From a virus, in IMG/VR virus record IMGVR_UViG_3300044699_000020, positions 1 through 36,858 of that record: a stretch of DNA of 36,858 nucleotides. One strand, 5' to 3'. A model generated the notes under the pieces. That model did not search any database, was not told the origin of the DNA, and worked only from the letters and a program-made list of their open reading frames with translations. Shown here piece by piece: positions 15,649-36,858 of this stretch. The translations under genes were made by a program, and so were the position numbers. Numbering within the stretch: the first letter of the stretch is position 1; each line of letters opens with the position of its first letter.

Positions 15649-18600
15649 ATGACTAGAGGTCCTGTTTGCATAGATCTGAATAATAACTGTAATATGGTTA
15701 AATCTGATAATGTAATTTATACAGGTCCAGATCTTACATGCACTGCTATAGCTACAAAGGATAACCTTACTGATATTATTAAGAAATTAGATAAGGCAAT
15801 TTGCAGTATTCCATCCAGTACAATCACTCTCACTACCCTAGGAACTAGTGGCCCCTCTACATTAATAGATAATGTATTGAATATTCCTATATACTCAGAG
15901 GAATCTGTTATAGGAACAGGTACTACTAATTATATCACTAAGTGGATTAGTCCAAACTCTATAGGTGATTCTGGGATCTATGAAGACTCTATTGGAAATA
16001 TAGGTATTTCAACTAATGCACCTATAGCAGGAGGTGGTGGTGTTAAATGGATAACACTTAATGGAAACTCAGCATTTTCAGCAGGGATTATTTATAATAA
16101 ACCAGGTGTTGGTAATTTAACAGCTTATATTGATAACGATAATTATTTTTCATACCAAGCAAATCCTGGTATTGGTCAAAAGTTCTTTACTAACGGTTCT
16201 GAAAAATTAAGGATTGCTACTATTACGGGTAACTTACTATTAAATACCACAATAGATAATGGAGCTGATAAACTTCAAGTTAATGGTACAGCTAAGTTCT
16301 TTGGCATAAGACCTATAAAATTAGACTCAACAACAGGAACTGTAAATATCATTGCTCCTGATGGTGGGTGGGCAATGGGTACATTTGTTAGAAATACCAC
16401 GGATACAGCAGCAATTGGAGGTTTTGGGGTTATGGGGAATTATCACATACCACAATATCATTATATTGGAGCTGATTATCAAAATCCTTTAGCAGCTTTT
16501 TTCACAAATGGAAATGTAGGTATTGGTTTTGGGACAACTAACCAATCTGATAAATTTGCTGTCAATGGTTCAGGTTTATTTACAGGTGGATTGAAATATA
16601 CTAGAGGTGTGCTATCTGGATCAACTGATTTAAATACAGTAATTGTTGCTGGATTTTACACAGTATATGGTGGAGCACCAAATACTCCAGGTACAGGAGA
16701 TTTCTATCTGACTGTTGAGAATGGGTACGGAGATTCTAATTATGTGCATCAAGTAGCTACGTCTTTAGGTAATGGTATTGCTCAAAATATAGTGTTTACC
16801 AGAACTAAATTGGGAGGTACTTGGACTCCTTGGAAACAATTATCTTCTACAGCGGTATCAGGAGCAGGTACACCTAACTATATTCCAAGATGGGATGCTA
16901 ATGGAGATCTTGTGAATAGTGCAATATATCAGGATGCTAATGGAAATATAGGTATCAATAATGCTACTCCTAAAGATTATGGAGCTGCTTGGTCAGTGTT
17001 GACTATTGGTGGTACAACTAAGATAGGTGTATTGAAATTAAATCGTCCTAGTTTCTCTGATGGGCCTGAGATCTATCAGGATTCCAGTGGAAATGTATTT
17101 TTTAACTGGAATTCAGGTAATGTTGGATTTACCATGAATACTCTTGGGGTGAGTTTAAAAGGTGGTGCAGCGACACATCCACTAACTTTACCTTCAACAG
17201 CTGCTGCAAATGGTATTGCTTTATACACTACTGTTGACCAGGGTACTAATTATGAAAGACTAAGAATTTTCACAACTGGCTCTAATCTTTTTAATATAAC
17301 ATCTGAGGCTGGAGGAACTGGAATCCTTAGAACTATTAATATAAATGGTGTTAAGATAGATAGCAAAGGTTCAGTTGTTATCAGACCTATAGCTCCAACT
17401 CCTGGAGGTGGTATAATAAACCTTAGTGGTGGAACTTCTCAGCTTAACTACGGAGTATGGAAGAACTATACTAATACAGCTGACATAGCTTACTTCGGTT
17501 CTATGAATGGAAGTGTTGATCTTGGTGGCGCTGAGATGATTTTGGTTTAAAGACTCCTAATGGAGATTTGTATTTAATAACTGGTTCTGGTAGGAGTATA
17601 AGATTGAATGTTGGTAATGTCTTAATCAATAATGCTGTTAACAACGGAGTTGATAAATTGCAAGTTAACGGATCAGCTAGATTTACGGATGGGTTAAGAT
17701 ACGGCTACGGGCAGAGAATTACAGACGGCAGCGACTTGAACACTGTTTTAGAGGCTGGGTTTTATTCCGGACAGCTTTAGTTAATTCTCCTATTTAATGG
17801 TCCTTATTATACCATAACAATTGAGAGCTTTGGTGGTTACGTACACCAAACCGCGACATGTATAGCTTACGGAACAGTAAATAAAATATATTCAAGAGTT
17901 AGAGATGGAGCGACTACGACTTGGACTCCTTGGGTTGAGGTATTAACATCAGGAACAGGAGCTGCATCAGGAGCTATTCTTAACCAGACTGCTGTTCAGC
18001 AAACAGGTGCATTTTATATATCAGGTGATTCATATATTGGTGGAGTAAGGATTGGTAGAGGAATGGAAGTTTGTTTGGAAATACTATATTAGGGGAGGTC
18101 ACAGGAGCTTCAATAACTACAGGTTTAAGAAATACTAATATAGGTAGAGGAGCAGGCGGTAACATAACTACAGGTTCAGATAACACTAATATAGGAGAAG
18201 GTGCAGGAGCTTCCAATTCTATTTCAGGTGCAAATACCAATATAGGGCGTTCTAGTGGAAGTAGTAGCACATCTCCAGCTAACACAATGATTGGTTGTAT
18301 TGCAGGTTACGCTGTAAGTGCAGGTACTGGTTCAAATGTTATGGTTGGTTCTGAGTCGGGGAGTTTTGTAAGTTCTTCTGGCGCACCTTTAACAGATTGT
18401 AGTAATTCAGTGTTCTTAGGTCAAGGCATTAGACCATTAAATAACGCATCCAACAGTGAAATAATTATAGGACAAAATGGAAGAGGTCTTGGTTCTTATA
18501 CAACAGTTTTAGGTAACAGTTTCTACAATACAAACTTGGTTAGGCGGAAATGTAACTATAGGAACAACTTTTAATGATGGGGTTAATAGTTACAGGTTAC

Positions 18601-20449
18601 AGGCAACACTAGAATAAATGGGCAATTAGGTATTGGTGTAACAGCAACATCAGGTAATGCCTTGCAAGTTGGTGATGGAACAGCTACTTATTATCATTAT
18701 ATAAATATAGGTGGATCTTCTGTTGATTTATACTTAGGGCAGCCAGCTACAACTACTAATCTTTTCGGAATAGGAGCAGGAAATCACGGTTTAATATTAC
18801 AAGACAAGCCTGGTAAGTCGTTAGTGTTTGGTACTGGAAGTAACTCGGTGGATTTGCATTTTGTTACTAATGGTTCAGTTAGAGCGACTATTAAGAAGTC
18901 AACAGGATGTTTTTTAATTAATACTCTTACAGATAATGGAGTTGATGTACTGCAGGTTAATGGTTCTGTATTAGCAACTGGTTATAAAATACCAAGTGGT
19001 ACATCTAATCAAATATTATTAGCTAATGGTAGTGTAACTACTCTTCAAAATAGTATGGCTGTTGATGGTACAGGTAGAGTTGTTCCTACTGTAGATGCTG
19101 TTAATCAACAATCAAATAATATAGCTAGAGCAGTAGTAGCTACAGGATTCTTAGATACCACAGATACATTCAGACTTTCTAGAGTTGATGATAACACATT
19201 AGGTATTAGTGCTTCTGCATATGGTATTGCTTTTAGTCAAGTATTTAAAACTCCTCCTTTTGCTCCTTCTAGTGCTGTAGTAAATATAACTACCAGAAAT
19301 ATTCCATTATCTGCCATAGGATTAACAGGAACAGGAACTGCTATTAAGTTTGTAGGATATAGAATGTCAGATGATTCTATTTTGTTCTCTGACACTCAAT
19401 TTATACAATCTCCTTCTGTATCTCAGTTAGGGATTGTTTTAGTAAAATATGATGCAGGAGTTACAAGTTTTATAGATGCTGACAGAACAACTATTACCAT
19501 ACCTGATGTAGCAGCTTATAGTAATCTGGATACATCTTCTACTGGTATAAAAGTTTTTACAAGTATAGCTGCTATTCCTGGTACCCTAAGTCATAGTAAT
19601 ACTGCAGGAAAGTTAATAGGTATATCTGTAGCATGGGGAACAAGCAATAATGATATTCAGCTTATAGCAGCTTCTGCTCTAACTTCTTTTACAAGATTAC
19701 ATCCAGGAAACAAACTAACTGTTGTTCCTCCTGCTGTAGTTACAACAATGGATCCTACTCAATATTATGATGGAGCAGCTCTAATACCAATTCCTGGTAA
19801 CCCCAATCAAGCAACAGTACAAAGACTTCTCTTCACTGTGAGGGGTAACTTTGTTTGGCAATATGGAGAACAACTATATGCAAACTTAATTGCTGCTCAA
19901 AACAATATATTACAAGCAAAATTTACAGATATTCTTCCTGAAGGAACATTTGCAGAGGTAGGTAGAATGGCTATAACAGCTTCCTGTACAGACATATCAA
20001 GTTCATTAGCACAATACTATCCTACTGGTGCAGGAGGTGGTGGAGGAAGTTCTACAGCAGGACCTACTACTTGGGGAACTATTGTGGGTAGTATAGATGA
20101 TCAGCTTGATTTAAAAGCAAGATTGGATTCCAAAGCTAGTATTGATTTAAAACCTAGAAAAAATATTACAGGTGTTACCTATACAATTGTTGCAGGTGAT
20201 GAAAACTTTATCCTATATACCACCAATACATCTCCTGTAGTAATCACTATACCTTCAGGACTAGCCTCTAATAAAGAGTATGAAGTATTTCAGTATGGAG
20301 AAGGTCAAGTGTCTTATGTGGTATCAGGAACAACTTTACTCTATACCTCATACGAGCAGCCTAAACACGAAGAGGTTAATACAAGAGTATTTATAACTTG
20401 GGTGGACACTGAAAAATATCAATTAACAGGTCAACTCTCAGCTTATTAA
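15649..20449 (+). CDS. giant mosaic tail fibre, frame broken about six times between 17.5 and 18.6 kb
   Basis: Consecutive frames (15649-17550, 17568-17780, an open stretch 17790-18060, 18071-18574, 18662-20449) read as one fibre of about 1600 residues. The N-terminus NVIYTGPDLTCTAIA resembles that of the collar protein (anchor). Next come beta-rich repeats with NGNIGI and DKLQVNG motifs. Two pyocin-knob-like domains follow: TDLNTVIVAGFY...WTPWKQL near 16620-16850 and SDLNTVLEAGFY...WTPWVEV near 17725-17940. A YadA-head-like run is next (NTNIGRGAGG, NTNIGEGAGA, NTNIGRSSGS; 18070-18480). The C-terminus has a Gly-rich GAGGGGGSS linker and a beta module. Adding or removing single bases restores continuity at each join. 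A host-recognition fibre. Confidence 0.8.
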
Positions 20450-20450
20450 C

Positions 20451-23400
20451 ATGAGAAGCTTTAAAAAGACACTTAGAAGTATTAGTACTAGTAATATCTA
20501 TACTAAAAGACTTAGAAACAGAACATCTCTTAACGGAGGTGTTACTGTTGATCGTTTTATTGCTGTTGATAGAATAAGAAATAGTTCTATAGGATTAGGA
20601 AGAGATATACTGAAGCAAGGTAATATTCCTGTTTCACCATATAATCTAGCATTATATACTGAAGAAGTAGATAATACTTATTGGAATAGAAATGGTATAA
20701 CAACAATTGTAGATGCTATTGCGAATCCTATAAATGGGGCTATTAATGCTGATAAAATAGTTACTACTGCTGCATCTACTGACCATGTTTTTAGTCGAAG
20801 TTTTACTTCTGTTGCTCCAAAAAATATAGATTATACATATAGTGTATATTCTAAAGCTGCTGAATATACATCAATTGCTATAGGACTTAGTGATAATGCA
20901 TCAGGTTTTGTTGTAGGCACTTTTAACTTATCAACTGGTGCTGCCTCAGGTTCTGCAAATAATGCATTTTTTACAAATTTAACTTGGACAACAGTAGATG
21001 CTGGTGATGGTTGGTTTAGGTGTATTGTAACTTTTAGATATATTGGTGCTAGTGCAATAACGGGAATAATATATAATTATGCTAAACAAAATGGTTCATA
21101 TTTAGGTGATGGTGTAAGTGGTATATATGTATGGGGAATGCAATTAGAACAAGGTTTAGTAGCAACTACATATCAGAGAACACCAATAAATACAATAGGT
21201 CAAGGAGCTTCATTTGTTTACAATCCATCAAGCTATGGAGAAGGTAAAAACTATTCTGTTTATCCACAGTTGAATAACTTCATTAAATTTAGTGAGGATT
21301 TTGGTAATGCGAATTGGGGAAAACAATCAGTTATCATAAGTTCAAATGTAATTGCTAATCCTATTAATGGCTTAACAACAGCTTCTAAATTAATAGAGAA
21401 TACTACTCTTCAACAACATATACTATCGTCAACAAATTATAGTTTTGCAAGTGGTAATTTTTTTACATTTTCTGTTTATGCAAAAGCAGGGGAAAGAAAT
21501 TCAATTCAATTAAGGGTAAATGATATTAATCAAGCAGTTGCAGTAGTAGTTGATTTAAATACAGGATTAATAACAACACCTCCGACAAGTTCATCAGATT
21601 TTACAAATGTTTCAGCTACAATTGTAAATGCAAATAATGGATGGTATAGAATAATATTAACAGCTAAATTTATAGGAACTACCAATTTAATTTTAAATCC
21701 TGCAATATATTTGTTTCCTACTGTAGCAGGAGATGGAACTTCAGGATTTTATATTTATGGTGCTCAACTTGAGAAAGGCTCAACAGCCACAACCTACCAA
21801 AGAACAACAGATGATATAATAGACTTTCAATTCACAAGAGCAACGACTTCAACAGCTACAAATAAACTAGGGGTAATTGAGGATAGTTGCTATAACTATA
21901 TATCTCAAAGTGAAACTTTAAATGTTGGGCCTTGGACACTGTTTAATACAACTGTATCTGCTAATCAAATCCTTGCACCTAACGGTGCTTTAACCGCAGA
22001 TAAAATAGTAGAAAGTAATACAAATGCAAGCCATCAATTATATCAAGTGTTTACTACAGGATTTTCAAGTATCAATACCACATTTACTTTCTCAGTCTAC
22101 ATGAAAGCAGCAGGCAGAACACAAGGGTATTTTCAAGTGTCTAATCAATCACTTTCTTTTCAGCAAAGTACTGTTATTGATTTAACAAACGGAACATATG
22201 TTAATGGTAGTCCTGGAGTGTCTGTAACAGACGTAGGTAACGGTTGGTATTTATTAAGCAAAAGTTATAATTCAAATAATGGCTTTGGATTCTTAATAGG
22301 CCCTGCATTAGCGGGCAGTCCAACATATTTAGGTAATGGAGTAGATGGAATATACGCATGGGGTGCTCAAGTTGAACAAGGCTCAACGCCAAGACCATAT
22401 CTAAAAACAACCAACAGATTAGCGGTACCTAGGATAGATTACTCTTTAGATTTAACAAAGCCTAGTTTATTGATTGAGCCACAAGCAACTAATTTAGCTT
22501 TACAAAGTGAGAATTTCAATGTATCATGGTCTAAAGGTCAAGTTACAATAGGTACTGATTTAGATATAGCTCCCAGTGGAGTTAATACAGCAGATAGAAT
22601 AATAGAGGGAAGTACCAATGCTAATCACATGGTAGGTAGTAGTTTTGCAAGTGTAAGTGGAAATACCTATACGTGGAGTATTTATGTTAAAAAATATACT
22701 GGAGTTTTAAATACAAGGAGGTATTTGCAATTATTGTTTTTGACTAATACAGGTGGAAGTACTGCATGGGGAGTAAATTTTGATTTACAAACTGGATTAG
22801 TAGCAGATACTAAACTTCAAAATCCAGCAGGTTCTCCCATTATAAATAATACTTATAATGTAATTGATAAAGATTCCTATTGGAGACTTAGCATTACTGC
22901 AACAATACAATTTAGTGGTACAAGTTATTTTAGAGCTGAGATGTCAAATACTGCAATACCTACATATAGTGGTTTTGCTGAGCCAACATATCTAGGAGAT
23001 GGAGTTTCTTATATAGTTCTTTGGGGAGCACAAATGGAATCTGGTTTAAGAGCCACAACATACATTCCTACTACAACAGCAACAGTAACAAGAAACGGAG
23101 AAACTTCTTTTGTTGATTTGTGGAATAATAACTTATTGAATAAAGATAACTTTACTTTATATTGGGAGGGAACATTATTAGATGCACAATCAACGAGTCC
23201 ATCATTTTGCTTGTCAGATACTACCACAGCTTTAAATACCAATCAGATTGGTTGGATTAATGCTGTAGTTCCTGTATACAGCGTAGCAAATACAAGGAGT
23301 ATCTTAGTTGATAGTAATGTAAGAAGTGGATTTAATAAGTTCCTTATTACATATGCTATAGGTATTGCTAACTTCTATATAAATGGAGTAAATGTTTGGT

Positions 23401-25739
23401 CTAATAGAAGTATACCTGTATTTGATTATAGATATTTAGTCTTAAATAATGGAGGAAGTGTATTTACAACAGATAAGATAGAGTTATATAAAGAAACTTT
23501 TAGTGATGCACAAGCTGTTACAAAAACTACTAATGCAGGAACAGTAATTACTGTACCATTTTTTGAATCTACTTGGAATACTAATAATACCTCTACTGGT
23601 TCATCTACTGCAACACAAATTAAATTACCTCTTATAGCATCAGGAATTTATAATATGTTCGTTGATTGGGGGGATAATACTTCAAGTCTTATCACTGTTT
23701 ATAACCAAGCAGAGGTAACACATACTTATGCAGTAGCAGGAACTTATAATATTAAGATTAAAGGTACTTGTATAGGATTTCAATTTGCTAATATTGGAGA
23801 TAGATTAAAGATCTTATCTATTGAAAAATGGGGTATTTTAAAATTAGGTAATTTAGGAAACTATTTCCAAGGTTGTGGAAACCTTACATTAGATTCTGTT
23901 TCTGATATTCTTGATTTAAGGGGAACAACGAATTTTAATGGTCTTTTTAATCAATGTGGAAAACTAGTAACTGTAAATAGAATTAATGAATGGGATACTT
24001 CTTTAGTTACAAATATGCAGTTTATGTTCTATCAAGCTTATTTATTCAATCAAAATCTTAATGGATTAAATACATCTAACGTTACCAACTTTACTTCTAT
24101 GTTTCAAAGTACTGCAGCCTTCAATAATGGTTTAGCTTCAGGAGTTGGTGGAACAATGAGTTTTAATACTTCTAATGCAACCACTTTAGCATCTATGTTT
24201 AGTTCAGCTACTTCATTTAATCAGGATGTAAGTAATTGGAATACAATAAATGTAACTTCTTTAGCAAGTACATTTTCTAGTGCAAATAAATTTAATAATG
24301 GATTGGCTCCAGCTGTACCAGGAACGTTAAATTGGAATACTTCCAAAGTTACAAATATGGATACTATGTTTGCTGCCACTACTTCATTCAACCAAAATAT
24401 AGGTTCTTGGGATGTAAGTAAAGTGACTACTTTTAATAATATGTTCCAAAATAATCAAGTTTTCAATAATGGTGGAAGTCCAAGTATCAACAATTGGCAG
24501 ATTAATACAACTGCACCAGTTATTATGTCTTCCATGTTCTATGTTACTGCGTTTAACCAGCCAATAAACTCTTGGAATGTAAGTACTGTTTCAACTATGG
24601 CGAGTATGTTCTATACTACTCCATTTAATCAGAATTTGAACAGTTGGACTCCGATTAACTGCACAAACTTCTCTATGATGTTTGCATCTACTCAATTCAA
24701 TAATGGATTAGCCCCTGGAGTTTCAGGCAACATGACTTGGACTATCAATACATCATCTCCTGTGAATATGGGTAATATGTTTGGGTTCACACCTAATAAT
24801 AATGGTTTCAATCAAAACATAGATTCGTGGGATGTAAGTCAAGTTACTAATATGGCGAGTATGTTCATAAATTGTAGAGTTTACAATCAGCCAATGAATA
24901 GTTGGAATACTGGCAAGGTTACAAACTATAATTCAATGTTTAGTGGAACTACTTCATTCAATAATGGACTTGCAGCAGGAGTTTCAGGAGATATGACTTG
25001 GACTGTTAATAGTACAACTCCTTGTAGTATGAACTCAATGTTTGGTAATCCTTCTCTTGTTAACAATGCCTTTAATCAAAATCTTAATTCTTGGAATACA
25101 AGTACTGTAACTGATATGGGTTCATTGTTTTATAATTGTAGAGTTTATAATCAACCAATGAATACTTGGGATGTCTCAAAAGTGACTAATTTTAATAGTA
25201 TGTTCAGTGCAGCTATAAGTTTCAATAATGGGTTAGCTCCTGCAGTTTCAGGAGTAATGCCTTGGATAATAAATACTACTAATGCAGTTACAATGGCTTC
25301 TATGTTTGGAACTGGCGTGGTATTTAATAATGCTTTTAACCAGGATATATCTAGTTGGGATACAAGTAAAGTTACTAATATGAGTGGTATGTTTAGAAGT
25401 GTTCAGACTTTTAATCAACCTATTGGTATTTGGAATACTTCTAGTGTTACTAATATGAATGATATGTTTGGAAATACTGCTGCAGGTTTCAATCAAGATA
25501 TAGGATCTTGGGATGTATCAAATGTCACAGACTTTAATTTATTTATGCAAAATAAACCTGTATCAGGTTTCTCAGCGTCTAACTTAGATGCTATATATAA
25601 TGGATGGAGTTCAAGACCTGTTAAACCAGGAATAACAATTACTTTTGGATCAGCTAAATATACATCAGCTTCAAGTGCTGGTAGGGCTATATTAACAGGA
25701 GCACCAAATAACTGGGTAATCACTGATGGTGGTATATAA
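20451..25739 (+). CDS. giant BspA-like leucine-rich-repeat adhesin/fibre protein
   Basis: A 1762-residue single intact frame starting 1 nt after the fibre stop. Residues 1-60 are a basic N-terminus without a signal peptide. Residues ~64-880 hold four tandem ~200-residue beta modules sharing FSVYxKA, DAGDGWFR-like and WGAQLEQGxxATTYQRT motifs (carbohydrate-binding-like). Residues ~885-1030 are a LamG-like lectin module. Residues ~1038-1110 contain a PKD-like VDWGDNTS...HTYAVAGTYNIKI. Residues ~1180-1720 are about 19 BspA/DUF285 repeats (consensus SWDVSxVTNMxxMFxxxxxFNQ), capped by AILTGAPNNWVITDGGI. It probably binds a host-surface glycan or protein as part of the virion. With no secretion signal, it is more likely a fibre than a cell-surface protein. 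Confidence 0.85.
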   Translation: MRSFKKTLRSISTSNIYTKRLRNRTSLNGGVTVDRFIAVDRIRNSSIGLGRDILKQGNIPVSPYNLALYTEEVDNTYWNRNGITTIVDAIANPINGAINADKIVTTAASTDHVFSRSFTSVAPKNIDYTYSVYSKAAEYTSIAIGLSDNASGFVVGTFNLSTGAASGSANNAFFTNLTWTTVDAGDGWFRCIVTFRYIGASAITGIIYNYAKQNGSYLGDGVSGIYVWGMQLEQGLVATTYQRTPINTIGQGASFVYNPSSYGEGKNYSVYPQLNNFIKFSEDFGNANWGKQSVIISSNVIANPINGLTTASKLIENTTLQQHILSSTNYSFASGNFFTFSVYAKAGERNSIQLRVNDINQAVAVVVDLNTGLITTPPTSSSDFTNVSATIVNANNGWYRIILTAKFIGTTNLILNPAIYLFPTVAGDGTSGFYIYGAQLEKGSTATTYQRTTDDIIDFQFTRATTSTATNKLGVIEDSCYNYISQSETLNVGPWTLFNTTVSANQILAPNGALTADKIVESNTNASHQLYQVFTTGFSSINTTFTFSVYMKAAGRTQGYFQVSNQSLSFQQSTVIDLTNGTYVNGSPGVSVTDVGNGWYLLSKSYNSNNGFGFLIGPALAGSPTYLGNGVDGIYAWGAQVEQGSTPRPYLKTTNRLAVPRIDYSLDLTKPSLLIEPQATNLALQSENFNVSWSKGQVTIGTDLDIAPSGVNTADRIIEGSTNANHMVGSSFASVSGNTYTWSIYVKKYTGVLNTRRYLQLLFLTNTGGSTAWGVNFDLQTGLVADTKLQNPAGSPIINNTYNVIDKDSYWRLSITATIQFSGTSYFRAEMSNTAIPTYSGFAEPTYLGDGVSYIVLWGAQMESGLRATTYIPTTTATVTRNGETSFVDLWNNNLLNKDNFTLYWEGTLLDAQSTSPSFCLSDTTTALNTNQIGWINAVVPVYSVANTRSILVDSNVRSGFNKFLITYAIGIANFYINGVNVWSNRSIPVFDYRYLVLNNGGSVFTTDKIELYKETFSDAQAVTKTTNAGTVITVPFFESTWNTNNTSTGSSTATQIKLPLIASGIYNMFVDWGDNTSSLITVYNQAEVTHTYAVAGTYNIKIKGTCIGFQFANIGDRLKILSIEKWGILKLGNLGNYFQGCGNLTLDSVSDILDLRGTTNFNGLFNQCGKLVTVNRINEWDTSLVTNMQFMFYQAYLFNQNLNGLNTSNVTNFTSMFQSTAAFNNGLASGVGGTMSFNTSNATTLASMFSSATSFNQDVSNWNTINVTSLASTFSSANKFNNGLAPAVPGTLNWNTSKVTNMDTMFAATTSFNQNIGSWDVSKVTTFNNMFQNNQVFNNGGSPSINNWQINTTAPVIMSSMFYVTAFNQPINSWNVSTVSTMASMFYTTPFNQNLNSWTPINCTNFSMMFASTQFNNGLAPGVSGNMTWTINTSSPVNMGNMFGFTPNNNGFNQNIDSWDVSQVTNMASMFINCRVYNQPMNSWNTGKVTNYNSMFSGTTSFNNGLAAGVSGDMTWTVNSTTPCSMNSMFGNPSLVNNAFNQNLNSWNTSTVTDMGSLFYNCRVYNQPMNTWDVSKVTNFNSMFSAAISFNNGLAPAVSGVMPWIINTTNAVTMASMFGTGVVFNNAFNQDISSWDTSKVTNMSGMFRSVQTFNQPIGIWNTSSVTNMNDMFGNTAAGFNQDIGSWDVSNVTDFNLFMQNKPVSGFSASNLDAIYNGWSSRPVKPGITITFGSAKYTSASSAGRAILTGAPNNWVITDGGI

Positions 25740-25825: not shown

Positions 25826-26854
25826 ATGGTAGGGGTAAGATCAAAAGTAGCTCTTGAATTTGATGCAAGAGATGAGAGAACGGGTATAGTGGAAATCCAG
25901 GTGACTGGATGGAACTATATCCCACAAGGCCAGACGTATATTATAAATGTAGTTGATTATGCAATCACTATTATAGAGATACCAACTGGTGAGATTGATG
26001 AGGATGGAAATCCAGTTATGATGGAGTTTGAAACTAAAGAAATCATTAAGAATAATGTTGTCTACTATAATCCTGGAGCTTATGATGCTAAGGTTAAGGA
26101 TGTAGGTATAGATATTCAAAGTGATGAAAGTTTCACAGATCAGTTTGAGAATTTCTTAAGTGAGTTTATGTTACAATTAGTTCAGGATGAGCTTTTGTAT
26201 GGTTCTGAAGCAGATGATTGGGAAGTGATTTCTGATGATACTACTACAACCACTACATCTATGGTTCCTACTACCTCCAGTACAACTACTGTATTAGGTC
26301 AGACTACTAGTACTACAACCACTTTGTTTGGTCAAACTACAACTAGTACAACTACTCTTTTAGGACAAACTACTACAAGTAGTACAACACAAGTTGGGAA
26401 TACTACTACTACTAGTTCTACTACAGGTGGTGGTAACACTACTACTAGTTCTACTACTGTACTTGGGACTACTACTAGTACTACTACTATATTTGGTCAA
26501 ACTACTAGTACCAGTACAACTGTTATTGTAGATCCTAATGTAACTACTACTAGTAGCACAACTAATGCTAATCAGAGTACAACTAGTAGCACTACTAAAG
26601 CTAGTACAACTACAAGTACTACTACTGTGTATGTTGATCCACGTATTACAACTACTAGTACTACTAATATTGTAGATCCACATGTCACTAGTACTTCTAC
26701 TACTGTTATTGTAGATCCTCGTATTACTACAACTAGTACTACTGCTATTGTGGATCCACGTATTACTACTACTACTAGTACTACTCACAAGTGTCACAGT
26801 TATTGTAAAGAGCATCATCTTACAACTACTACAACAACTACAATTATGAGATAG
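25826..26854 (+). CDS. protein with long Thr/Ser-rich repetitive C-terminal domain
   Basis: A 342-residue protein. Residues 1-135 are a beta-rich domain (IVEIQVTGWNYIPQG, YAITIIEIPTG) ending in an acidic helix. Residues ~138-330 are almost entirely Thr/Ser, broken by two families of short words: xLGQTTTSTTT and VDPRITTTSTT. The tail is a His/Cys cluster (HKCHSYCKEHHL) followed by Thr7. The region is probably an extended, possibly O-glycosylated stalk, with the N-terminal domain docking to the virion. The upstream 86-nt gap is AT-rich without a clear promoter. Related Thr/Ser segments occur at 13484-13550 and 27500-27610. Function unknown. Confidence 0.75.
   Translation: MVGVRSKVALEFDARDERTGIVEIQVTGWNYIPQGQTYIINVVDYAITIIEIPTGEIDEDGNPVMMEFETKEIIKNNVVYYNPGAYDAKVKDVGIDIQSDESFTDQFENFLSEFMLQLVQDELLYGSEADDWEVISDDTTTTTTSMVPTTSSTTTVLGQTTSTTTTLFGQTTTSTTTLLGQTTTSSTTQVGNTTTTSSTTGGGNTTTSSTTVLGTTTSTTTIFGQTTSTSTTVIVDPNVTTTSSTTNANQSTTSSTTKASTTTSTTTVYVDPRITTTSTTNIVDPHVTSTSTTVIVDPRITTTSTTAIVDPRITTTTSTTHKCHSYCKEHHLTTTTTTTIMR
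26240..26850 (+). repeat. ACT/ACA/AGT triplet-rich low-complexity DNA encoding the Thr/Ser domain
   Basis: About 600 bp dominated by ACT, ACA and AGT codons. ACTAGT recurs many times, and higher-order units GTAGATCC(T/A)CGTATTAC recur near 26640, 26720 and 26755. Because the unit is a multiple of three, slippage would change stalk length without breaking the frame. Antisense open frames here are composition artefacts. Confidence 0.8.
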
Positions 26855-27281: not shown

Positions 27282-27866
27282 ATGAATGCTGTAATAAGAT
27301 TAACAACTGCAGGTCCTGATACAGGCCCATTTTATTTATATTCTAATATAGATGGTTATATAGGTGCATTTGCATCAAACCTAACTAGATCTCAATTGAT
27401 AGCTGGTTATGTAACTGATAAGCTACCTAATGGTTCTACTATAGTAAGAATTAAATCTTTTGGTGTATGCAATAATTATGTTGATGTTACAGTACCTTCT
27501 ACAATCACTACAACCACTATAGCTCCTACTACCACTACATCAACTACTATATTAGTTTCTACCACTACTAGTACTACTATAGCAGGTACAACTACTACAA
27601 CTACTACAGTATTTCCTACTCTATATAGGGTATCTGCTTCTTGTTGTAATCCTCCTAATAACACAGAAAGATTGGTTAATCTTCCTGGTCTTGATGGTTA
27701 TGGACCTACAGCAACCTTTACAGGTGATGATGGATTCCCATATACATTAATAAGTAGTATTAAAGTAGCAGGTACTGCTAATGTTTTCCAACATCCTGTA
27801 GATAGGGATATTTATCCTTCTTGTTTTGAATGGATTACTGTTTATGTAAATTGTCCTGGACAATAA
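27282..27866 (+). CDS. two-domain protein joined by a Thr-rich linker (paralogue A)
   Basis: 194 residues. The N-terminal ~72 residues share with the next gene the pattern TGPFxLYSxIDG, SNxxRSxLxxGY, TIxRxxSxGxC, then NxVDV. A ~42-residue Thr linker (about residues 74-112, TTTTTIAPTTTTSTT-like) follows, then a C-terminal domain with SCCNPPNN, GDDGFPYTLISSIKVAG and a final ITVYVNCPGQ. The layout of conserved base, flexible stalk and different tip looks like a short accessory fibre or decoration protein, but no virion evidence exists. It has no signal peptide or membrane span. Confidence 0.7.
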   Translation: MNAVIRLTTAGPDTGPFYLYSNIDGYIGAFASNLTRSQLIAGYVTDKLPNGSTIVRIKSFGVCNNYVDVTVPSTITTTTIAPTTTTSTTILVSTTTSTTIAGTTTTTTTVFPTLYRVSASCCNPPNNTERLVNLPGLDGYGPTATFTGDDGFPYTLISSIKVAGTANVFQHPVDRDIYPSCFEWITVYVNCPGQ

Positions 27867-27876
27867 TAATATAATC

Positions 27877-28371
27877 ATGAAAGTAGATATAACATTAACC
27901 ATAGCTGATACAGAAACTGGACCATTTGATATATACTCTGATATAGATGGATTTAATGTTCCATTTGAGTCTAATGTATCCAGAAGTGCTCTTGTATCTG
28001 GTTATACTTCTAGTATAGTACCTGATTATGCTACTATCCTTAGATTGCGGTCTAAAGGAATATGTCTAAACTCGGTTGATATTCCTATTAGTATAATCCC
28101 TGGTCCATATGAATTCTATGTTACCAATAGTTCTACTACAGCAGCAGCTGTATGTCCTGATATGGCTTATATAATAGCACTATGGTGTAATGAACAGATG
28201 CCTGCATTAGGAAGTATTATGTATGATGATGACACTATGCTCTTCCCTTATGTAGGTGGTAATCTTTATTTTAAGTTGATTCCTGCATTAGATCCCCCAG
28301 AGGAGAGTGCTATAGTTGTCAGAATAGATGATAATGGTACTGTTACTGATACTTACGTATGTACTCAATAG
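27877..28371 (+). CDS. paralogue B of the TGPF/YSxxDG domain, without Thr linker
   Basis: 164 residues. The N-terminal domain aligns with that of the upstream gene (TGPFDIYSDIDGF, SNVSRSALVSGYTSS, ILRLRSKGICLNSVDI). The Thr linker is replaced by a short PGPYEFYVTNSSTTAAA segment, and the C-terminal domain (MAYIIALWCNEQMP, VGGNLYFKLIPALD) differs from that of paralogue A. Tandem duplication with exchange of the distal part is the simplest reading. It is the last gene before a strong terminator, so it closes the long structural/adhesion operon. Confidence 0.7.
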   Translation: MKVDITLTIADTETGPFDIYSDIDGFNVPFESNVSRSALVSGYTSSIVPDYATILRLRSKGICLNSVDIPISIIPGPYEFYVTNSSTTAAAVCPDMAYIIALWCNEQMPALGSIMYDDDTMLFPYVGGNLYFKLIPALDPPEESAIVVRIDDNGTVTDTYVCTQ

Positions 28372-28653: not shown

Positions 28654-31268
28654 ATGGAAAAATTATTACCCTGTAGACTCAAAGTGACTCTACTATTTAT
28701 GTCTTTCGTAGCATTATTTACTACGAATAATTTGTCAGCTCAAGTGTGTCTTGATTCAAGAACACTTAATCCTGTAACTCTACAGCCTGCTCAGTTTGTG
28801 TGTGCTGGAGATAATCTATTGTGGACTACCACTTCTATTGGTTCTAGTGCTGGTTTAGCTATTACATGGACACTTGTAGATGGTACTGGTGGTGCATTCT
28901 TCGTAGCATCTGGTACTACTACTTATAGTACAGTGGTTAATGCTGGTACTCCTAACATTAACAGTGCTTTAGTTACTATGGGGCCTAATGCAGGTTCTGT
29001 AACTGTTACTATGCAGTTTGATGCTAACCCTAATCCTAACTCTTGCTCTTCTTCTGGTATAGCTAAAGTTCTTCAGGTAACTGGAACTCCTTCTGTTCAG
29101 AGATGTGCTCAGGATTTAGGCTCTATTCAAGCTACAGCTTTGACTAATCTTGGTTTCCCTATTGGTACTGTTAGTCTTCCTCCTTATCACTTTACATTGA
29201 ATCCTGGTGGTTTAACAAATGATACTGGTTTATTCTCAGGACTAGCTGCTGGTGTCTATACTGTTACTGTTACAGATGATGATGGATGTACTGCAACCTC
29301 TGGAAATATTAATCTTGTTAACCCTCAGGTAGTTGCTGTAAATGCTATATGCCCTGGTGATGTAACAAATAACTCTTGTTTTTATGCAGATCAAGCAGCT
29401 CTTGATGCAGCTGTTGCAGCTTGGAGAGCAGGATTTAGTTTTACTGGTGGTACTGGTGTAGTAACTGAAACTAGAAATGAGATAGGTGCTGCTCTTTTAT
29501 GTGGTGGAACTCTTACTATAAACTATAGTGTAATAGATGAATGTCAACAAGTTGATAACTGTAGTGCTTCATTTATAGTTACTGCTCCTGCTGTTGTAAA
29601 TGCACTTCTTCCTAATAATAGAGAAATTAATGCTTGTGATGTTATAGATGCAGATGCACTTAGAGCTCTTGTTGATGCTTATAGAGCTGAATTTAGAGCT
29701 GAAGGTGGTTGTGCTCCTAGAGTAGAATTGGATCCTTATGTTCTGCCTAATTTATGTGATGGTGTAATTAATATCACTGGACGTATCATAGACAGATGTA
29801 ATGTAAATATTCCTATAGCTAGACAGTTTATTATTAGACCTGCTGTTGCTTTGCAATTTGAAGCTCCTAATAATGATATCAAAGCTGCTTGTTTCTACCA
29901 AAATCAAGCTGAAGTGGTTGCTGCCTTCAATATTTGGGTACAAGGATTTAGAATCATAAGTGGTGGATGTGCTCCAACTATAGAAGTTCTTCCTGCTGTT
30001 ATTCCTAATTTCTGTGGTGGTGTAGTTACTGTTCGTGCTATTGTTAGAGACAGATGTTTTGATCAAAGAGAAATAGCTGCACAATTTGGTGTAGCAGATG
30101 CTACTCCTCCAGTAATTAATAACTGTCCTCCAGGTGCTCAATTAGGTTGTAATCCTATTATTCCTGTAGCATCTGTACTTGATGTTACATCTGCTTGTCC
30201 TTTCACAACTGATGTTCAAGAAAACATTGTGGCTGATGGTTGTAACAGAACTCTAACCAGAGTGTACGTTGTTGCAAATGGATGTATGGTGAAGCAAGAT
30301 GTACTCAAATATTTAATTATACAATAGATACTGATGTTCCTGTTATTACAGCTACAGGTAGTACACTTAACTTAGGAGAAAATCCTACAGCTGAACAAAT
30401 TGAAGCTGCATTAGGTGTTGCTACAATAGCAGATGCTTGTGGTGCTAATCTAGTAGTAACAACTGATCCTGTAATAGAAACAGAACCTTGTCACTTCTCT
30501 CAAACAAGAAGATGGAATGGTTCTGATAATTGTCTACATGTAGCAGCAGAAGTTACTCGTACAGTAACTTGGACAACTTCTGGTTGTGAATTGAATGGTT
30601 GTACTCTAGGATACTGGAAAAACCATACTCAAGCTTGGAATTGTTATTCAACATGTACATTGTATAAAGATGTATTCTCTGCTTCAACACTTGATGCTAA
30701 CTTAACATTACAACAAGCACTTAACTTAGGTGGTGGTGGTTGTAATAACTTAGCACGTCAATCTGTAGCAGCTTTATTGAACATTTGTGAAGGTTTACCT
30801 TATGGTGTTCGTACTACAGATGAGTTGATTGCACTTGTTAATGCAGCATTTACTAATGGTACATGTGGTGCTCTAGGTGCTCAATTGGATGCATTCAATA
30901 ATGAAGGTGGTGTAAATCACTGTAATGTTGAGAAATCTCCAAACACAACAGCTCCTTCAGCAGGATGTGGTGTTGGTGCTTCAAAAGATAAAGGAAAATC
31001 TCATCATTCTGGTTTAGAAGGAGAAGGAAAACTAAATAACTTTAAAGTTTATCCAAATCCTTTTACAAATACATTCAATGTTGGTAGTGATGCTACTGAT
31101 AATGTGAGTATGACTGTGTATGATTTACTAGGAAGAAAAATTGATGATCAAACAATTATCCCTGGTAATGAAGGGTTACCATTTGGTCAAGATTATCCAA
31201 CTGGTGTATATACCACTCTGTTTACCTTTGATGGTGGAACAAAGTTCATTAGAATTATAAAACAATAA
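28654..31268 (+). CDS. secreted Cys-rich repeat protein with T9SS sorting domain, one frameshift
   Basis: About 870 residues in two frames (28654 to ~30275, then ~30280 to 31268); one added base near 30275 joins VVANGC to GEARCTQIFNYT. A signal peptide (1-29, LLFMSFVALFTT, cleavage after LSA) is followed by beta-rich domains. Then come three or more ~90-residue repeats with an ACxxxxxAL helix, GGCAPxVE, PNxCxG and DRC landmarks. A GYWKNH domain (30598-30915) with RQSVAALLN follows. The C-terminal ~78 residues form a type A T9SS sorting domain (FKVYPNPFTNTF...VYDLLGRKI...PTGVYTTLF...KFIRIIKQ). Sec exports it to the periplasm and the host T9SS would place it on the cell surface. The gene has its own promoter and terminators. 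Superinfection exclusion or surface alteration is plausible. Confidence 0.88.
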
Positions 31269-32102: not shown

Positions 32103-32581
32103 GAGTAGCTAATGACTATAGAACCACTAGTAAGGAGACATATGATGTCTTCTGTAAGAAGTATCCAAATATTAATGTACCTTTTGATACTTGGAAGAAA
32201 GTAATATACTCTTTCAATGGCCTGTATAAGGAACATCTTCTAGAAACTGGTGACAGAGAGAAGCTTCCTCAAGGATTAGGTCAATTTGCCATTATTAAAA
32301 AGAAAAGAAGAAAAGTTGTTAGTCATAATGGTACAGATTATATTAATCTTCCTATAGATTGGAAGAAAACAAAAGAGAAAGGAAAAATAATATATAATTT
32401 TAATTTTCATACAGAGGGTTATTTCTTTGGGTGGCATTGGTTTAAAGAGAATGCTACATTCAGGCATGCTGATTTATGGTATTTTAAAGCATGTAGATTC
32501 AGCTCAAGACTAATAACAGAATACATAAATAAGGATAATAAGTACCAACATCTCTATAAAGAATGGAAGTTGGTAAAATAA
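32099..32581 (+). CDS. conserved crAss-like tail-module protein
   Basis: A 160-residue intact protein with a helical N-terminus (SKETYDVFCKKYPN, FDTWKKVIYSFNGLY), a basic loop (IIKKKRRKVV) and an aromatic-rich C-terminal half (FHTEGYFFGWHWFKENATF). It is conserved between the ring protein and the adaptor gene in crAss-like phages (remembered synteny). The basic patch suggests contact with DNA or another acidic virion part, but no catalytic motif is visible. A tail-hub or ring-associated role is inferred from position only. It starts by ATGA overlap and its stop lies 8 nt before the next start. Confidence 0.72.
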   Translation: MRVANDYRTTSKETYDVFCKKYPNINVPFDTWKKVIYSFNGLYKEHLLETGDREKLPQGLGQFAIIKKKRRKVVSHNGTDYINLPIDWKKTKEKGKIIYNFNFHTEGYFFGWHWFKENATFRHADLWYFKACRFSSRLITEYINKDNKYQHLYKEWKLVK

Positions 32582-32589
32582 AAACAATC

Positions 32590-33452
32590 ATGTCTTACTA
32601 CTATAAATATAATTTCGTCAGTCCAGAACCTATTTATTCTGTGGTTAAAGAGGAGCTTAAGAGCTACTTTGATACAGGTGCAATAGATGATTTACTATTT
32701 CCTGTATATCTGGACAAATGTTTAAGAAGATTGGGAAGATCTTCTTATAAAATAGTGCCTGTTATCTTGGATGTGTTTGATTTTGAAGCACGTCTTCCAG
32801 ATAACTTCTATGCTGTTAGAGAAGCTTGGCTTTGTGCTGAGATGCCCTTAAGACCTTATCAGTCTCCAAATGCATTCTATTCACAAACTAATTGTGCTAC
32901 AGTTATACAAATTGGACCTACAATTACAGATCAAACCAGGATCATGTACCAATATAGATTGTGGTACTCTGCCTACAGATTGTAATGATTGTCCTCCTAA
33001 TATGGTACAAGTATGTATATAAAACAACTCATGAGATACAAAGATCTGTTACCAAAACCCATCTTCTTAAACCAGGTAATATATCAGTCCACAAAGATTG
33101 CTCTATGGACTGCAGAAATCTTGGTTCGTCTTCTATAGATTCTTTTGATATTAGAGATAATAAATTTATTACCAATTTCAGAGATGGTACAGTGTTTCTT
33201 GTTATGTATGAGATAGATTATGATGATCTGGGAAATCAATTGGTTCCTGATAATTTTCGTATCAGTGAATTTGTTGAAGCATTTATTAAATTCAAAGTAT
33301 TTGAAGTGCTGACTAATCAGATTACTGATGAGACTTTTAATCAGATGCAACAGAAAATGATACTCTATAAACAGCTGGCTGATGAGGCTTATATAATGGC
33401 TGATATAGAAATCAAGAAACAAGATGTATATGCTAAGCAAAGAAGATTATAA
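32590..33452 (+). CDS. head-tail adaptor/tail tubular protein (P22 gp4-like), frame broken twice
   Basis: About 287 residues. The ATG at 32590 (MSYYYKYNFVSPEPIYSVV) is preferred over 32563 because it matches the remembered family start and avoids overlapping the upstream gene. KSYFDTGAIDDLLFP, RLPDNFYAVREAW and FYSQTNC are landmarks of the crAss-like adaptor. Shifts near 32938 and 33015 must be bridged (GSCTNIDCGTLPTDCNDC lies between them) to reach KTTHEIQRSVTKTHLLKPG and the helical C-terminus. It forms the dodecameric ring under the portal and connects to the muzzle. Both shifts are corrected by removing one base. Confidence 0.82.
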
Positions 33453-33537: not shown

Positions 33538-36500
33538 ATGGCAGAAGATAAAAGGTAACAGTAATTTTCAACATAATTAGGCAGAGTTGGACTTAATATG
33601 GATTCTACCCCTGATCAGATTGAGAAGGGGTCACTATCCTATGCTCTTAATGCTGCTCTAGAGAATTTTGATTCTAATAGTATTAATTATCAGAATGAAC
33701 CTGGTAATGAATTCTGTTTAACATTCCCTAGGAACTATATACTTATAGGAACTCATTATATACAGGAGAGAAATAAACATATCTTTATGTTAGCTAACCC
33801 AACTACTAATGATAGTGAGATTGGGTATATGGATAATCATGACTGTGTTTATAAAACTCTTATTAATGATCCATGCTTGGGATTTGATGTAAACACACCA
33901 ATTCCTAAAATGGTCATAGAACTACTAATTGTTCTACAGAAATATATTGGCCTGATCAACATGGAAGAAGATATCTTGATATAGACAATATTCCATATAA
34001 GCTTACTTCAGGAACTAAAGTGTGTGATCCTATATACAGCACTGAAATAGATTGTAAATCAATTGTCTGTACAACCTAATTTTGAAATACCTTTAATAAG
34101 TATTAAGGGTATTATGAATGGAGGTAGTATAAACAGCTGGAACAGTACAGTTTGCTATTCAGTATGGAGATGCATTGGGTAATCCCTATACATCTTACTA
34201 TTCTGTTACTAATCCTACTCCTATAGCTGATCCTAATCTAATTACAGTTAATTTTGATTATCCTGTAGGTAAATCTGTTGCTCTTGAGATAGATCATATA
34301 GATACATCTGGAAGATTTGGATATTTCAATCTTGCAGTGATTAAAACAGTTAATGATATTACCTCTGTAGAGTTGGTAGGAACATTTCCTATAACTAATG
34401 ATCTACAGGAAATAATCTATACAGGGCAGAAAGTAGATAATATAAGACTTACAGTTAATGATATATTTGAGAAGTTCCCTGTATATGATAGAGCTGATGA
34501 TATTACAACAGCATCTGATGTATTGATATGGAAAGGAGTGTCTTCTCATGAGAGAATCAGTTATCAGAAGATTGCTAATAAGATAACTCTTCAATGGCAA
34601 ACATGGAGAATACCTCCTACAGAGAACTATGCTGATGAGGTGAATGCAACAAACTTAAGAGGATATATGAGAGATGAAATATATCCATTTGAGTTTGTTC
34701 CTATATTAAAGAGTGGTAACAAACTGATGCATTTCCATATACCTGGTAGAGTTAGAAATGAATTAGAATCTAGTTTACCATTGGTATATAGAAATAATCC
34801 TGATTTTATCTCTGCTGATCCAGATAGTGAATATGAACCTTATTGGAAGATATATAACACTGCTACTAATCTAGGTTTCTCTGCTGGATATAGTTCTGAT
34901 GAGGGGTATGAAGGACCATATCAATATGGTAATTTTGCATTCTGGGAATCTGAACTAACCTACCCATGTGATGAAGAAATATGGGGAGAATTAGCAGGAG
35001 AGAAGATAAGACATCATAAATTTCCTGATGTATTGGTTTCTCCTATTTTTGAATCTGATGGATTCAGTGGAATTGATAATCTGGTAATGGGGAACAGAGC
35101 TGTATTTCCTATTGGTGTAAAAATAAATATAGCTCAAATTAGATTGCTTATAGAAGAGTCAGATTTAACACAAGAACAAAAAGATGATATTGTAGGGTTT
35201 AAAATAGTTAGAGGAAATAGAGGTACAAACAAGTCTGTAGTTTGCCAAAGGTATCCTCCGTAATGTTAATAAGTACACTAGAGAGGAGCAAGACTTCTAC
35301 TTTCCAAACTATCCCTATAATGATATGCATGAAGATCCTTTCTTAAATGCTATTAATAATGCCTGGTCTGCAGAGTGTAAATCTTATACTGCTGAAGTAA
35401 CATCATTATCTCCTCCAGACAGTACTTCTTCTGTCCCATATGTAAGAATACAATTTGCTAGTTGTAGTAACAATAAAACTGATTCTAAGGTAATAGAATC
35501 AATAGGATCATATGAGATTTGTTCTCTTGATATTCCTATTAAAGTATCCCCTGGTGGGAGTGTAAAATTGGTGAATCAGATTATGAAGAATGGAATATAG
35601 TATCAAGTGGAGATCCTTCATCATTCTGTCAAGGATATAGAGCACAATGGAGAGATCAATATAATGTTGTTCATACAGAATGGGTAAGTGGATGGCCTAC
35701 AAATGAATATATTAATGCACAAGTTAAAAAAGGAACTAAACCCGTATGTATAGAAAATTGTGATGCGTGTGGAAAGTCAATTTTTAAAACAGGTGATATA
35801 ATTGGTTCTACTAGTTGTAAGACAGAAACACCTTTACCAGCTTTAACAACTCATAATGATGTTCCATATAGACTTATATTTAAACTCTCCTGAAACTAAT
35901 TTTGCACAACCCTTCTTAGGAGATGTTCTTAAGTTAGAAAGTGTAATGTATGGTAAAGGAAGAGCTCATTTTGTACAGGTAAAGGATAATGCTAAGTATA
36001 GATTGCTTACAGAAGAAGCTCAGAGAGATGCTTTGAAAAGTGCTCAGGCTGTAGGTAATATTACCAATCCTAACAATGCAGCTGCAATGTTTACTGTATA
36101 TCAATCTTATCTCACTATATATATTAATGGAATAACTAAAAAGAATTATGCATATTCATTTAATTCCATAGCTGATTATAATCATGCTGAAGGAGTTCCT
36201 AATAACCAAGGAGTTAAACAGAGAATGATAGATCTTAAGAGATATCTTATTCCTGTTATACAGTCTGTGGGAGAAGAGGATATTAATATAAACAATTATA
36301 ACAGAGAAACTTCTGTTTATATAAAAACAGATGAAGATGTAAGTCCTCTACCTTTTCCTGATAGTAGTCCTCCTATGTTAAATGGTGGTATATCAAAAAT
36401 GAAGGAGTATTCCAGATTTACTATTGGTGGTACATTTCATTGTGCCAGTCCTCAACTTGAGCAGGATATTAATGTAATATCATATTATGCCTCTATTAAG

Positions 36501-36858
36501 AATATCTTTATCAACCAATGGGGACAGATATATTCTTATGAGACTATTGATACAGGATTTCAAAGAAATTTAAGTACAGCTGAGTCTGAAGCTACTGTAT
36601 TTGGTGGAGATACATTTATTACCAGATTTGCTTTCAAGACTAAGCTTCCTTTCTTTGTTGATAATAGAGTGGGGGCTCCTGATGAGAGTGATATATTCTA
36701 TGATGAACTTGGTAATGTAGCCTATCCTAAATACTGGCACTCAGCTAGATCTATTTTAAAAGATTATTCGGTTGAAGGTTTAGGTACACTCACCAATATA
36801 ATTTCATATAAAGCACATAACTTTGATTGTCCTAATGATCAGTCACTAAAACCAGGAC
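33538..36858 (+). CDS. muzzle/stabilization protein, 5' part, frame broken at least seven times, runs off the window
   Basis: Frames add up to more than 1100 residues. ATG 33538 gives MAEDKR, then GNSNFQHN, then GLNMDSTPDQIEKGSLSYA after shifts near 33555 and 33580. Further breaks lie near 33935, 34070, 34135, 35245, 35580 and 35885, with long clean stretches between them (34175-35240; 35890 to the end, still open). Landmarks include ALNAALENFDSNSINYQNEPG, ILIGTHYIQERNKHIF, FPVYDRADDI and FKIVRGNRGTNKSV-type segments. This is the very large tail-nozzle ('muzzle', often annotated stabilization) protein of crAss-like phages, positioned after the adaptor. It closes the tail channel and is a beta-rich virion component. 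Confidence 0.82.

What the first reader, a model, noticed from the sequence alone, without database searches (positions are those of the whole stretch)
20451..25739. 1762-residue phage protein combining four lectin-like modules, LamG, PKD and about 19 BspA repeats
BspA/DUF285 leucine-rich repeats are typical of bacterial and protist surface adhesins. Here they form the C-terminal third of a protein without a signal peptide, just behind the tail fibre. Every second to fourth repeat carries a FNNGLAPGVSGxMTW insertion, giving a super-period within the solenoid. This looks like a modular receptor-binding device assembled by duplication and acquired from host adhesins.
Basis: partly seen in the sequence, partly recalled or inferred. 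Interest (0 to 1): 0.7.

Follow-up and report, generated by a model that had tools for sequence, protein, structure and literature searches.

The report
Phage four-lectin adhesin with mobile tip
A virus of bacteria carries one very large protein that joins four sugar-binding-type domains to a long repeat "tip"; the same tip is found on unrelated viruses, so it looks like an interchangeable part for gripping host cells, built from kinds of parts already known.

Summary
The 1762-aa ORF at 20451-25739 is real. It holds four copies of the GTA head-spike-fibre domain (NF048003, E 6e-114), a LamG-like domain and a C-terminal cassette: PKD-like cap, 18-19 DUF285/PARCEL ("BspA") repeats, end cap. The window is a crAss-like phage fragment; the gene sits 1 bp behind a (broken) tail-fibre gene. 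A relative with an 89%-identical capsid protein has a PARCEL gene in the same slot, without the four domains.

Best reading: a virion receptor-binding protein formed by end-to-end fusion of two phage genes. The tip cassette moves between phages: the window's copy is closer to that of a contractile-tailed phage than to its sibling's (AU p 1.5e-6 against pairing with the sibling), and among 80 sampled viral ORFs it lies behind at least 14 unrelated N-terminal parts.

"Acquired from host adhesins" is not supported: the insert pattern hit 18 BspA ORFs among 20 viral matches, but 0 among 13 matches in 84,980 species genomes. The four domains are not recent duplicates. Phage DUF285 proteins and head-spike domains are known already: a new variant of a known kind. 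Virion location and binding are inferred, not shown.

The parts
15649..20449 (+). tail-fibre gene directly upstream, broken into ORFs 15649-17550, 18071-18574, 18662-20449
   Evidence: PHROG tail fibre / tail spike hits; the kin genome has one intact 1005-aa ORF in this place
20451..25739 (+). whole ORF, 1762 aa, four-lectin plus PARCEL-tip protein
20451..20639 (+). N-terminal 63 residues, presumed attachment part, no signal peptide
   Evidence: role inferred
20640..21185 (+). module A, GTA head-spike-fibre domain
21273..21809 (+). module B, GTA head-spike-fibre domain; matches E217 baseplate gp45 (8env)
21888..22412 (+). module C, GTA head-spike-fibre domain (best NF048003 stretch)
22488..23075 (+). 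module D, GTA head-spike-fibre domain
23091..23543 (+). LamG/CBM-like domain; ends where the aligned viral tail proteins end
23544..23561 (+). fusion joint (residues 1032-1037) between tail-protein part and cassette
   Evidence: inference
23562..23945 (+). PKD-like N-cap of the PARCEL cassette
23946..25562 (+). 18-19 DUF285/PARCEL (BspA) repeats, predicted LRR-like solenoid
24120..24164 (+). insert-bearing repeat 1 (FNNGLASGVGG)
24291..24335 (+). insert-bearing repeat 2 (FNNGLAPAVPG)
24462..24506 (+). insert variant FNNGGSPSINN
24696..24740 (+). insert-bearing repeat 3 (FNNGLAPGVSG)
24957..25001 (+). insert-bearing repeat 4 (FNNGLAAGVSG)
25221..25265 (+). insert-bearing repeat 5 (FNNGLAPAVSG)
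25563..25736 (+). conserved C-terminal cap (LDAIYNGW...NNWVITDGGI)
27282..28371 (+). two downstream genes with an anchor-like domain that in other viral contigs carries the PARCEL cassette

Best explanation
A virion receptor-binding (adhesin) protein of a crAss-like phage, most likely part of the tail-fibre assembly. It arose by in-frame, end-to-end joining of two kinds of phage gene: (1) a tail/spike protein of NF048003 lectin-type domains ending in a LamG-like domain, and (2) a tip adhesin made of a PKD-like cap, a PARCEL (DUF285) solenoid and an end cap. Proposed mechanism: the short N-terminus docks the protein on the fibre or hub; modules A-D and LamG bind surface polysaccharide weakly and multivalently, as the RcGTA head spike fibre binds capsule; the solenoid at the far end gives strain-specific recognition. 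The tip cassette is exchanged between phages as a unit and its repeats turn over by duplication. Shown: domains, joint, gene place, phage-to-phage exchange. Inferred: virion location, orientation, glycan binding, specificity.
For: NF048003 x4 and PARCEL above curated cut-offs; RcGTA head spike fibre 6tb9 E 4.8e-20 and E217 gp45 8env E 3.2e-10 by sequence; D+LamG model best matched by Pa193/E217 baseplate proteins, Z 21.6 and 18.9, then lectin/CBM domains. crAss-like context: Crass_capsid above cut-off, terminase and portal PHROGs. The sibling G019 (MCP 89% identical) has fibre gene then PARCEL gene then anchor-domain genes in the same slot. Joint: the aligned viral module+LamG proteins end where P0001's LamG ends; stand-alone cassette proteins begin after 15-25 residues; L142 shows a second fusion at a like border. 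Exchange: cap 59.7% and end cap 71.1% identical to L060, from a contig with a tail sheath gene, against 40.5% and 59.8% to the sibling; AU p 1.5e-6 against pairing with the sibling and 1e-32 against one clade of five crAss-like relatives. Capsule binding by the RcGTA fibre: PMC10218006 section 3.3, PMC7296036 passages.
Against: No proteomic, structural or binding data. The NF048003-type fold also serves as a structural baseplate part (E217 gp45 anchors the fibre; PMC10329688 passages), so lectin function does not follow from the fold. Foldseek gave no match at E<=0.001 for the solenoid; the LRR assignment rests on VIA Z 17.6 and family knowledge. The N-terminus resembles no docking peptide that I know. 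The contig has frame breaks elsewhere, so an assembly fault cannot be wholly excluded.
Confidence: 0.68

Rival explanations
1. It is a head-surface fibre rather than a tail-fibre tip: the four domains are of the RcGTA head-spike type, and crassviruses carry head fibres as well as tail fibres.
For: NF048003 is named for the head spike fibre; phiCrAss001 has two head fibre proteins (PMC10172136 passages).
Against: The gene lies behind a tail-fibre gene and beside PHROG tail genes; the N-terminus lacks the Ile/Leu-rich docking peptide described for RcGTA (PMC7296036 passages; P0001 N-terminus); the same fold occurs in a baseplate.
Confidence: 0.17
2. It is made in the infected cell and displayed or released outside (a phage-encoded host adhesin or superinfection-exclusion factor), not a virion part.
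For: Bacterial cassette proteins are annotated as surface proteins, and two Salinibacter plasmid copies begin with apparent signal peptides. The same phage encodes an export-type protein nearby (28654-31268).
Against: No signal peptide in P0001 and no T9SS sorting domain; NF048003 modules are tail/spike parts; structural-gene synteny.
Confidence: 0.08
3. The joining of lectin array and PARCEL cassette is an assembly chimera.
For: The contig's fibre and muzzle genes are broken in several frames while kin have intact ORFs; no other record sampled has four modules plus the cassette.
Against: The joint is in frame at a domain border; both flanking neighbourhoods match the kin's gene order; GC does not step (0.315-0.334 over 21001-25500; 0.315-0.384 over the window); an independent fusion of the same kind exists in L142.
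Confidence: 0.06

Closest known systems
RcGTA head spike fibre Rcc01080 (NF048003; PDB 6tb9)
   Same: Same domain family, four stretches far above the curated cut-off; homologue binds capsulated cells better than capsule-free ones (PMC10218006 section 3.3).
   Different: 325 residues against four domains in 1762; different N-terminus; no PARCEL cassette.
Baseplate triplex protein gp45 of Pseudomonas phage E217 and its Pa193 counterpart (8env, 9b45)
   Same: Best fold match of module D + LamG (Z 18.9 and 21.6).
   Different: It is a structural part of a contractile baseplate that anchors the tail fibre (PMC10329688 passages).
DUF285 / PARCEL proteins of phages, e.g. Vibrio phage pir03 ORF200 and ORF287, Aeromonas phage LAh10, Sphingomonas phage PAU gp103
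   Same: Same repeat family; large phage proteins; PHROG 22899 is 1857 positions long, the length of PAU gp103, and aligns to cap and repeats.
   Different: Cap only 38% identical to PAU; no insert pattern in the PAU locus; four NF048003 modules in front were not seen in the ORFs examined.
Bacterial BspA-family surface proteins, e.g. Salinibacter ruber plasmid copies
   Same: Cap, repeats and end cap in the same order (97% of the cassette covered at 33% identity).
   Different: Apparent signal peptide directly before the cap; no insert-bearing repeats.
BACON tandem arrays of crAss-like phages
   Same: Tandem binding-type repeats next to tail genes in crAss-like phages, with both duplication and domain transfer (PMC6949934 abstract).
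   Different: Unrelated domain family.

Membership tests
GTA head-spike-fibre domain family (NF048003) | score above the curated cut-off | tested here: met
   378.8 bits, cut-off 36, 4 stretches
GTA head-spike-fibre domain family (NF048003) | Ile/Leu-rich N-terminal peptide that docks on the spike base (RcGTA head fibre as a whole) | tested here: not met
   P0001 starts MRSFKKTLRSISTSNIY against the Leu-Gly repeat in PMC7296036; it carries the domain and is not filed as a head spike fibre
GTA head-spike-fibre domain family (NF048003) | binding to capsular polysaccharide | not testable with these tools
   needs protein and cells
DUF285 / PARCEL (BspA) repeat family | profile score above curated cut-offs | tested here: met
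   PF03382 378.7 bits, cut-off 25; TIGR02167 82 bits, cut-off 30
DUF285 / PARCEL (BspA) repeat family | about 25-residue repeat predicted as LRR-like solenoid | tested here: met
   plain units of 24-26 residues; model pLDDT 83, pTM 0.75; VIA best 4fs7 Z 17.6, rmsd 4.3, 347 aligned; Foldseek itself gave nothing at E<=0.001
DUF285 / PARCEL (BspA) repeat family | dyad symmetry of the repeat DNA (PARCEL definition) | not tested
   no inverted-repeat test of single units was made
Bacterial BspA-type surface adhesin | signal peptide or sorting signal for export | tested here: not met
   inspection and crude test; no Por_Secre_tail or other Pfam hit besides DUF285 on P0001
crAss-like phage (host genome of the gene) | crassvirus major capsid protein | tested here: met
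   PF23898 96.8 bits, cut-off 27
crAss-like phage (host genome of the gene) | muzzle protein | tested here: inconclusive
   window pieces match an intact 1748-aa ORF of kin at 58-66%; Pfam muzzle match below cut-off (17.7, cut-off 27)
T-even gp37/gp38-like fibre plus tip-adhesin pair (recalled analogy) | adhesin gene directly behind the fibre gene | tested here: met
   1-bp gap in the window; 2-bp gap in kin L056
T-even gp37/gp38-like fibre plus tip-adhesin pair (recalled analogy) | adhesin sits at the fibre tip | not testable with these tools
   needs virion structure

The most novel reading that the evidence does not exclude
The PKD-cap + PARCEL + end-cap block is a mobile 'adhesin tip' cassette of phages, with a subfamily of insert-bearing repeats seen only in viruses. 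It moves as a unit between phages of different tail types, plugs on to many unrelated virion anchors (short peptides, Ig-like stalks, Thr/Pro-rich stalks, LamG parts, and here a four-lectin array), and diversifies by repeat turnover. A host-surface fold would then serve as a shared virus-side recognition device, the counterpart of exported bacterial BspA adhesins.
Probability: 0.55. Interest if true: 0.65.

Novelty: new variant of a known kind. Interest (0 to 1): 0.48.

Why it matters
If the cassette is the part that reads the host surface, phages with different tails can trade host recognition as one block. The cassette boundaries found here (cap start, end motif LDAIYNGW) give a handle for finding such proteins and for testing whether the cassette tracks host range across uncultured phages, where receptor-binding proteins are mostly unknown. 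It also shows the same repeat module used by bacteria behind a signal peptide and by phages behind virion parts.

Tried and rejected
Rejected: that the FNNG...GV repeat was borrowed from sampled hosts (13 genome matches, none a BspA protein). Limits: exact-match pattern; one genome per species; phages in GenBank were not pattern-scanned. DUF285 itself is uncommon in the two phyla sampled (2 of 299 and 2 of 299 genomes). Bacteroidota genomes could not be sampled by the genome tool, because no Bacteroidota genome handle was obtained.

Rejected: recent duplication of modules A-D. The quick tree of 116 modules needs 4 changes for the four window modules, as many as shuffled labels; deep branches are poorly supported and module D is on a long branch, and A and B fall together with one other phage's module. 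The careful tree did not finish.

Rejected: foreign base composition.

Led nowhere: whole-protein search of viral contigs (1 locus); phage records similar to the upstream ORF 18662-20449 (none); profile search with A2 (too little conserved); Pfam for the LamG part (none); Foldseek for the solenoid. PADLOC, Rfam, promoter and single-unit palindrome scans were not made.

Rows left out: two of 20 viral pattern loci (L005, L016) are not BspA ORFs. Of the 19 records, 16 were fetched for neighbourhood analysis; G001, G010 and G016 were not. In the cassette tree, 79 of 88 sequences had both caps; only two bacterial sequences were in it.

Full report
What is there. The ORF at 20451-25739 is intact, 1762 aa. 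Its N-terminal 63 residues are followed by four copies of the NCBI-curated GTA head-spike-fibre domain (NF048003, 378.8 bits against a cut-off of 36, 4 stretches) at residues 64-245, 275-453, 480-654 and 680-875. Next come a LamG/CBM-like domain (to about residue 1031) and a block of PKD-like cap, 18-19 DUF285/PARCEL repeats and end cap. By sequence, modules C-D match the RcGTA head spike fibre (6tb9, E 4.8e-20) and module B the E217 baseplate protein gp45 (8env, E 3.2e-10). The PKD label is only a sub-threshold match and LamG has no Pfam hit.

Repeat pattern. The insertion is seven residues longer than a plain unit and occurs at residues 1224, 1281, 1338 (variant), 1416, 1503 and 1591, with spacings of 57, 57, 78, 87 and 88. 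It is therefore a 2-unit then a 3-unit super-repeat. In 16 relatives the insert occurs 1 or 2 times, against 5 here. Super-units 1453-1540 and 1541-1628 are 61% identical, with 40 of 88 third codon positions different, so the duplication is old. Inserts 1 and 2 match other phages' inserts better than each other; for inserts 3 and 4 the other window copy is the best match, and insert 5 is nearer to that of L068.

Setting. The window is a virus record with terminase, portal and major capsid genes of crAss-like type. Its best kin among the records compared, G019, has an MCP 89.4% identical and a terminase 53% identical. In G019 the order is tail gene, fibre gene (1005 aa), PARCEL gene (1121 aa), anchor-domain genes; in the window it is tail gene, broken fibre gene, the 1762-aa gene, a Thr-rich gene and one more ORF, anchor-domain genes. 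The PARCEL gene is in the same slot, but the four modules are only in the window copy: the module profile hits none of the 16 relatives, and no match in 19 records begins before residue 1021.

A fusion joint. In viral proteins of module + LamG type the sequence ends with a motif like LTDSELxxLT, which is where P0001's LamG part ends. Stand-alone cassette proteins begin about 15-25 residues before the cap. So P0001 reads as one gene of each kind joined in frame. Of the best 80 loci found with the modules, one (L142, 795 aa, 1 module, 12 PARCEL hits) shows a second fusion of this kind. Of 80 viral ORFs sampled by the end motif, 0 carry the module.

Exchange between phages. The window's cap and end cap are 59.7% and 71.1% identical to those of L060, whose contig has a tail sheath gene (PHROG 23, E 1.9e-72), but 40.5% and 59.8% identical to those of its sibling L056. 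On a quick tree of 79 cassettes, holding the window with L056 is rejected (AU p 1.5e-6), as is one clade of five crAss-like relatives (p 1e-32). Of the 80 end-motif ORFs, 72 have the cap; those with more than 60 residues before it (48) fall into 14 unrelated N-terminal groups. One group (L170, L193, L195) uses the same anchor domain as the window's own downstream genes 27282 and 27877. In 9 of 14 relatives examined, the gene before the PARCEL gene ends in a shared domain of about 90 residues; the window's fibre does not match it by BLAST.

Host origin. The insert DNA pattern gave 20 viral loci, 18 in BspA ORFs, and 13 loci in 84,980 species genomes, none in a BspA ORF. Plasmid-borne bacterial copies of the whole cassette exist at about 33% identity (Salinibacter ruber) and begin with apparent signal peptides; none of the 23 loci L259-L281 (21 bacterial, 2 phage) has FNNG[LFM]A or its near forms. 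The family is thus shared, but the window's version sits among phage versions. The direction of the ancient transfer is open.

Fold. The cassette model (15 sequences, pLDDT 83.1, pTM 0.75) is LRR-like: VIA-align ranks the Bacteroides ovatus LRR protein 4fs7 first (Z 17.6, rmsd 4.3, 347 aligned), but Foldseek gave no match at E<=0.001. The module D + LamG model (pLDDT 77.6) matches the Pa193 and E217 baseplate proteins (Z 21.6 and 18.9), sialidase lectin domains for the LamG part (Z 12-13) and CBM modules for the module part (Z 11-12).

Function. A fluorescent RcGTA head spike fibre bound wild-type cells fully, but only about 4% bound to a capsule-less mutant (PMC10218006, section 3.3 read). 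The fold also serves structurally in E217, where gp45 anchors the tail fibre (PMC10329688, passages). phiCrAss001 tail fibres are flexible multi-protein assemblies docked through gp22 (PMC10172136, passages). From these I infer multivalent polysaccharide contact by A-D and LamG, and specific contact by the solenoid. Neither is shown.

Prior knowledge. PARCEL repeats were defined in bacteria and microbial eukaryotes with horizontal spread (PMC2996958, passages). [quoted passage not shown] My paper searches listed no description of the cassette moving between phages or joined to head-spike domains; the library holds open-licence papers only, and I read listings and passages, not all papers.

Caution about the contig. 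The muzzle gene is one 1748-aa ORF in the kin but four or more pieces in the window (33598-36857), and 32563-33452 and the fibre gene are also split. Indel errors are the likely cause. P0001 itself is unbroken, and GC is even across it.

Noticed in passing
28654-31268: Two overlapping ORFs in different frames, probably one gene: an apparent signal peptide, HYR-like sequence and a type IX secretion sorting domain (Por_Secre_tail 29.1 bits, cut-off 27). Another viral contig has a 47% relative (L282); phage-encoded T9SS cargo has been reported for 'Cryophage' (PMC7468147 passages). In kin and relatives (L258, L062, L066) other genes sit in this place.
   Followed up: partly
15649-20449, 32563-33452, 33598-36857: Fibre, neighbouring and muzzle genes are broken in several frames while kin have intact ORFs; likely indel errors in the contig.
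   Followed up: partly
25826-26854 and 27282-27866: Long Thr-rich stretches (TTTSTTT, VDPRITTTST repeats), stalk-like, next to the adhesin gene.
   Followed up: no
L021/L068: A cassette protein of 541 aa in a viral contig with an apparent signal peptide (MKKFLFLLLLPFVGFGQ), unlike the other relatives; perhaps a host-derived stretch or an exported phage version.
   Followed up: no
L142:5707-8091: Independent fusion of one head-spike module, a short LamG-like part, PKD-like cap and 12 PARCEL hits in one 795-aa ORF.
   Followed up: partly
L183:1802-7015: A 1737-aa viral ORF with 44 PARCEL profile hits and two end-cap motifs, as if two cassettes stand in tandem.
   Followed up: no
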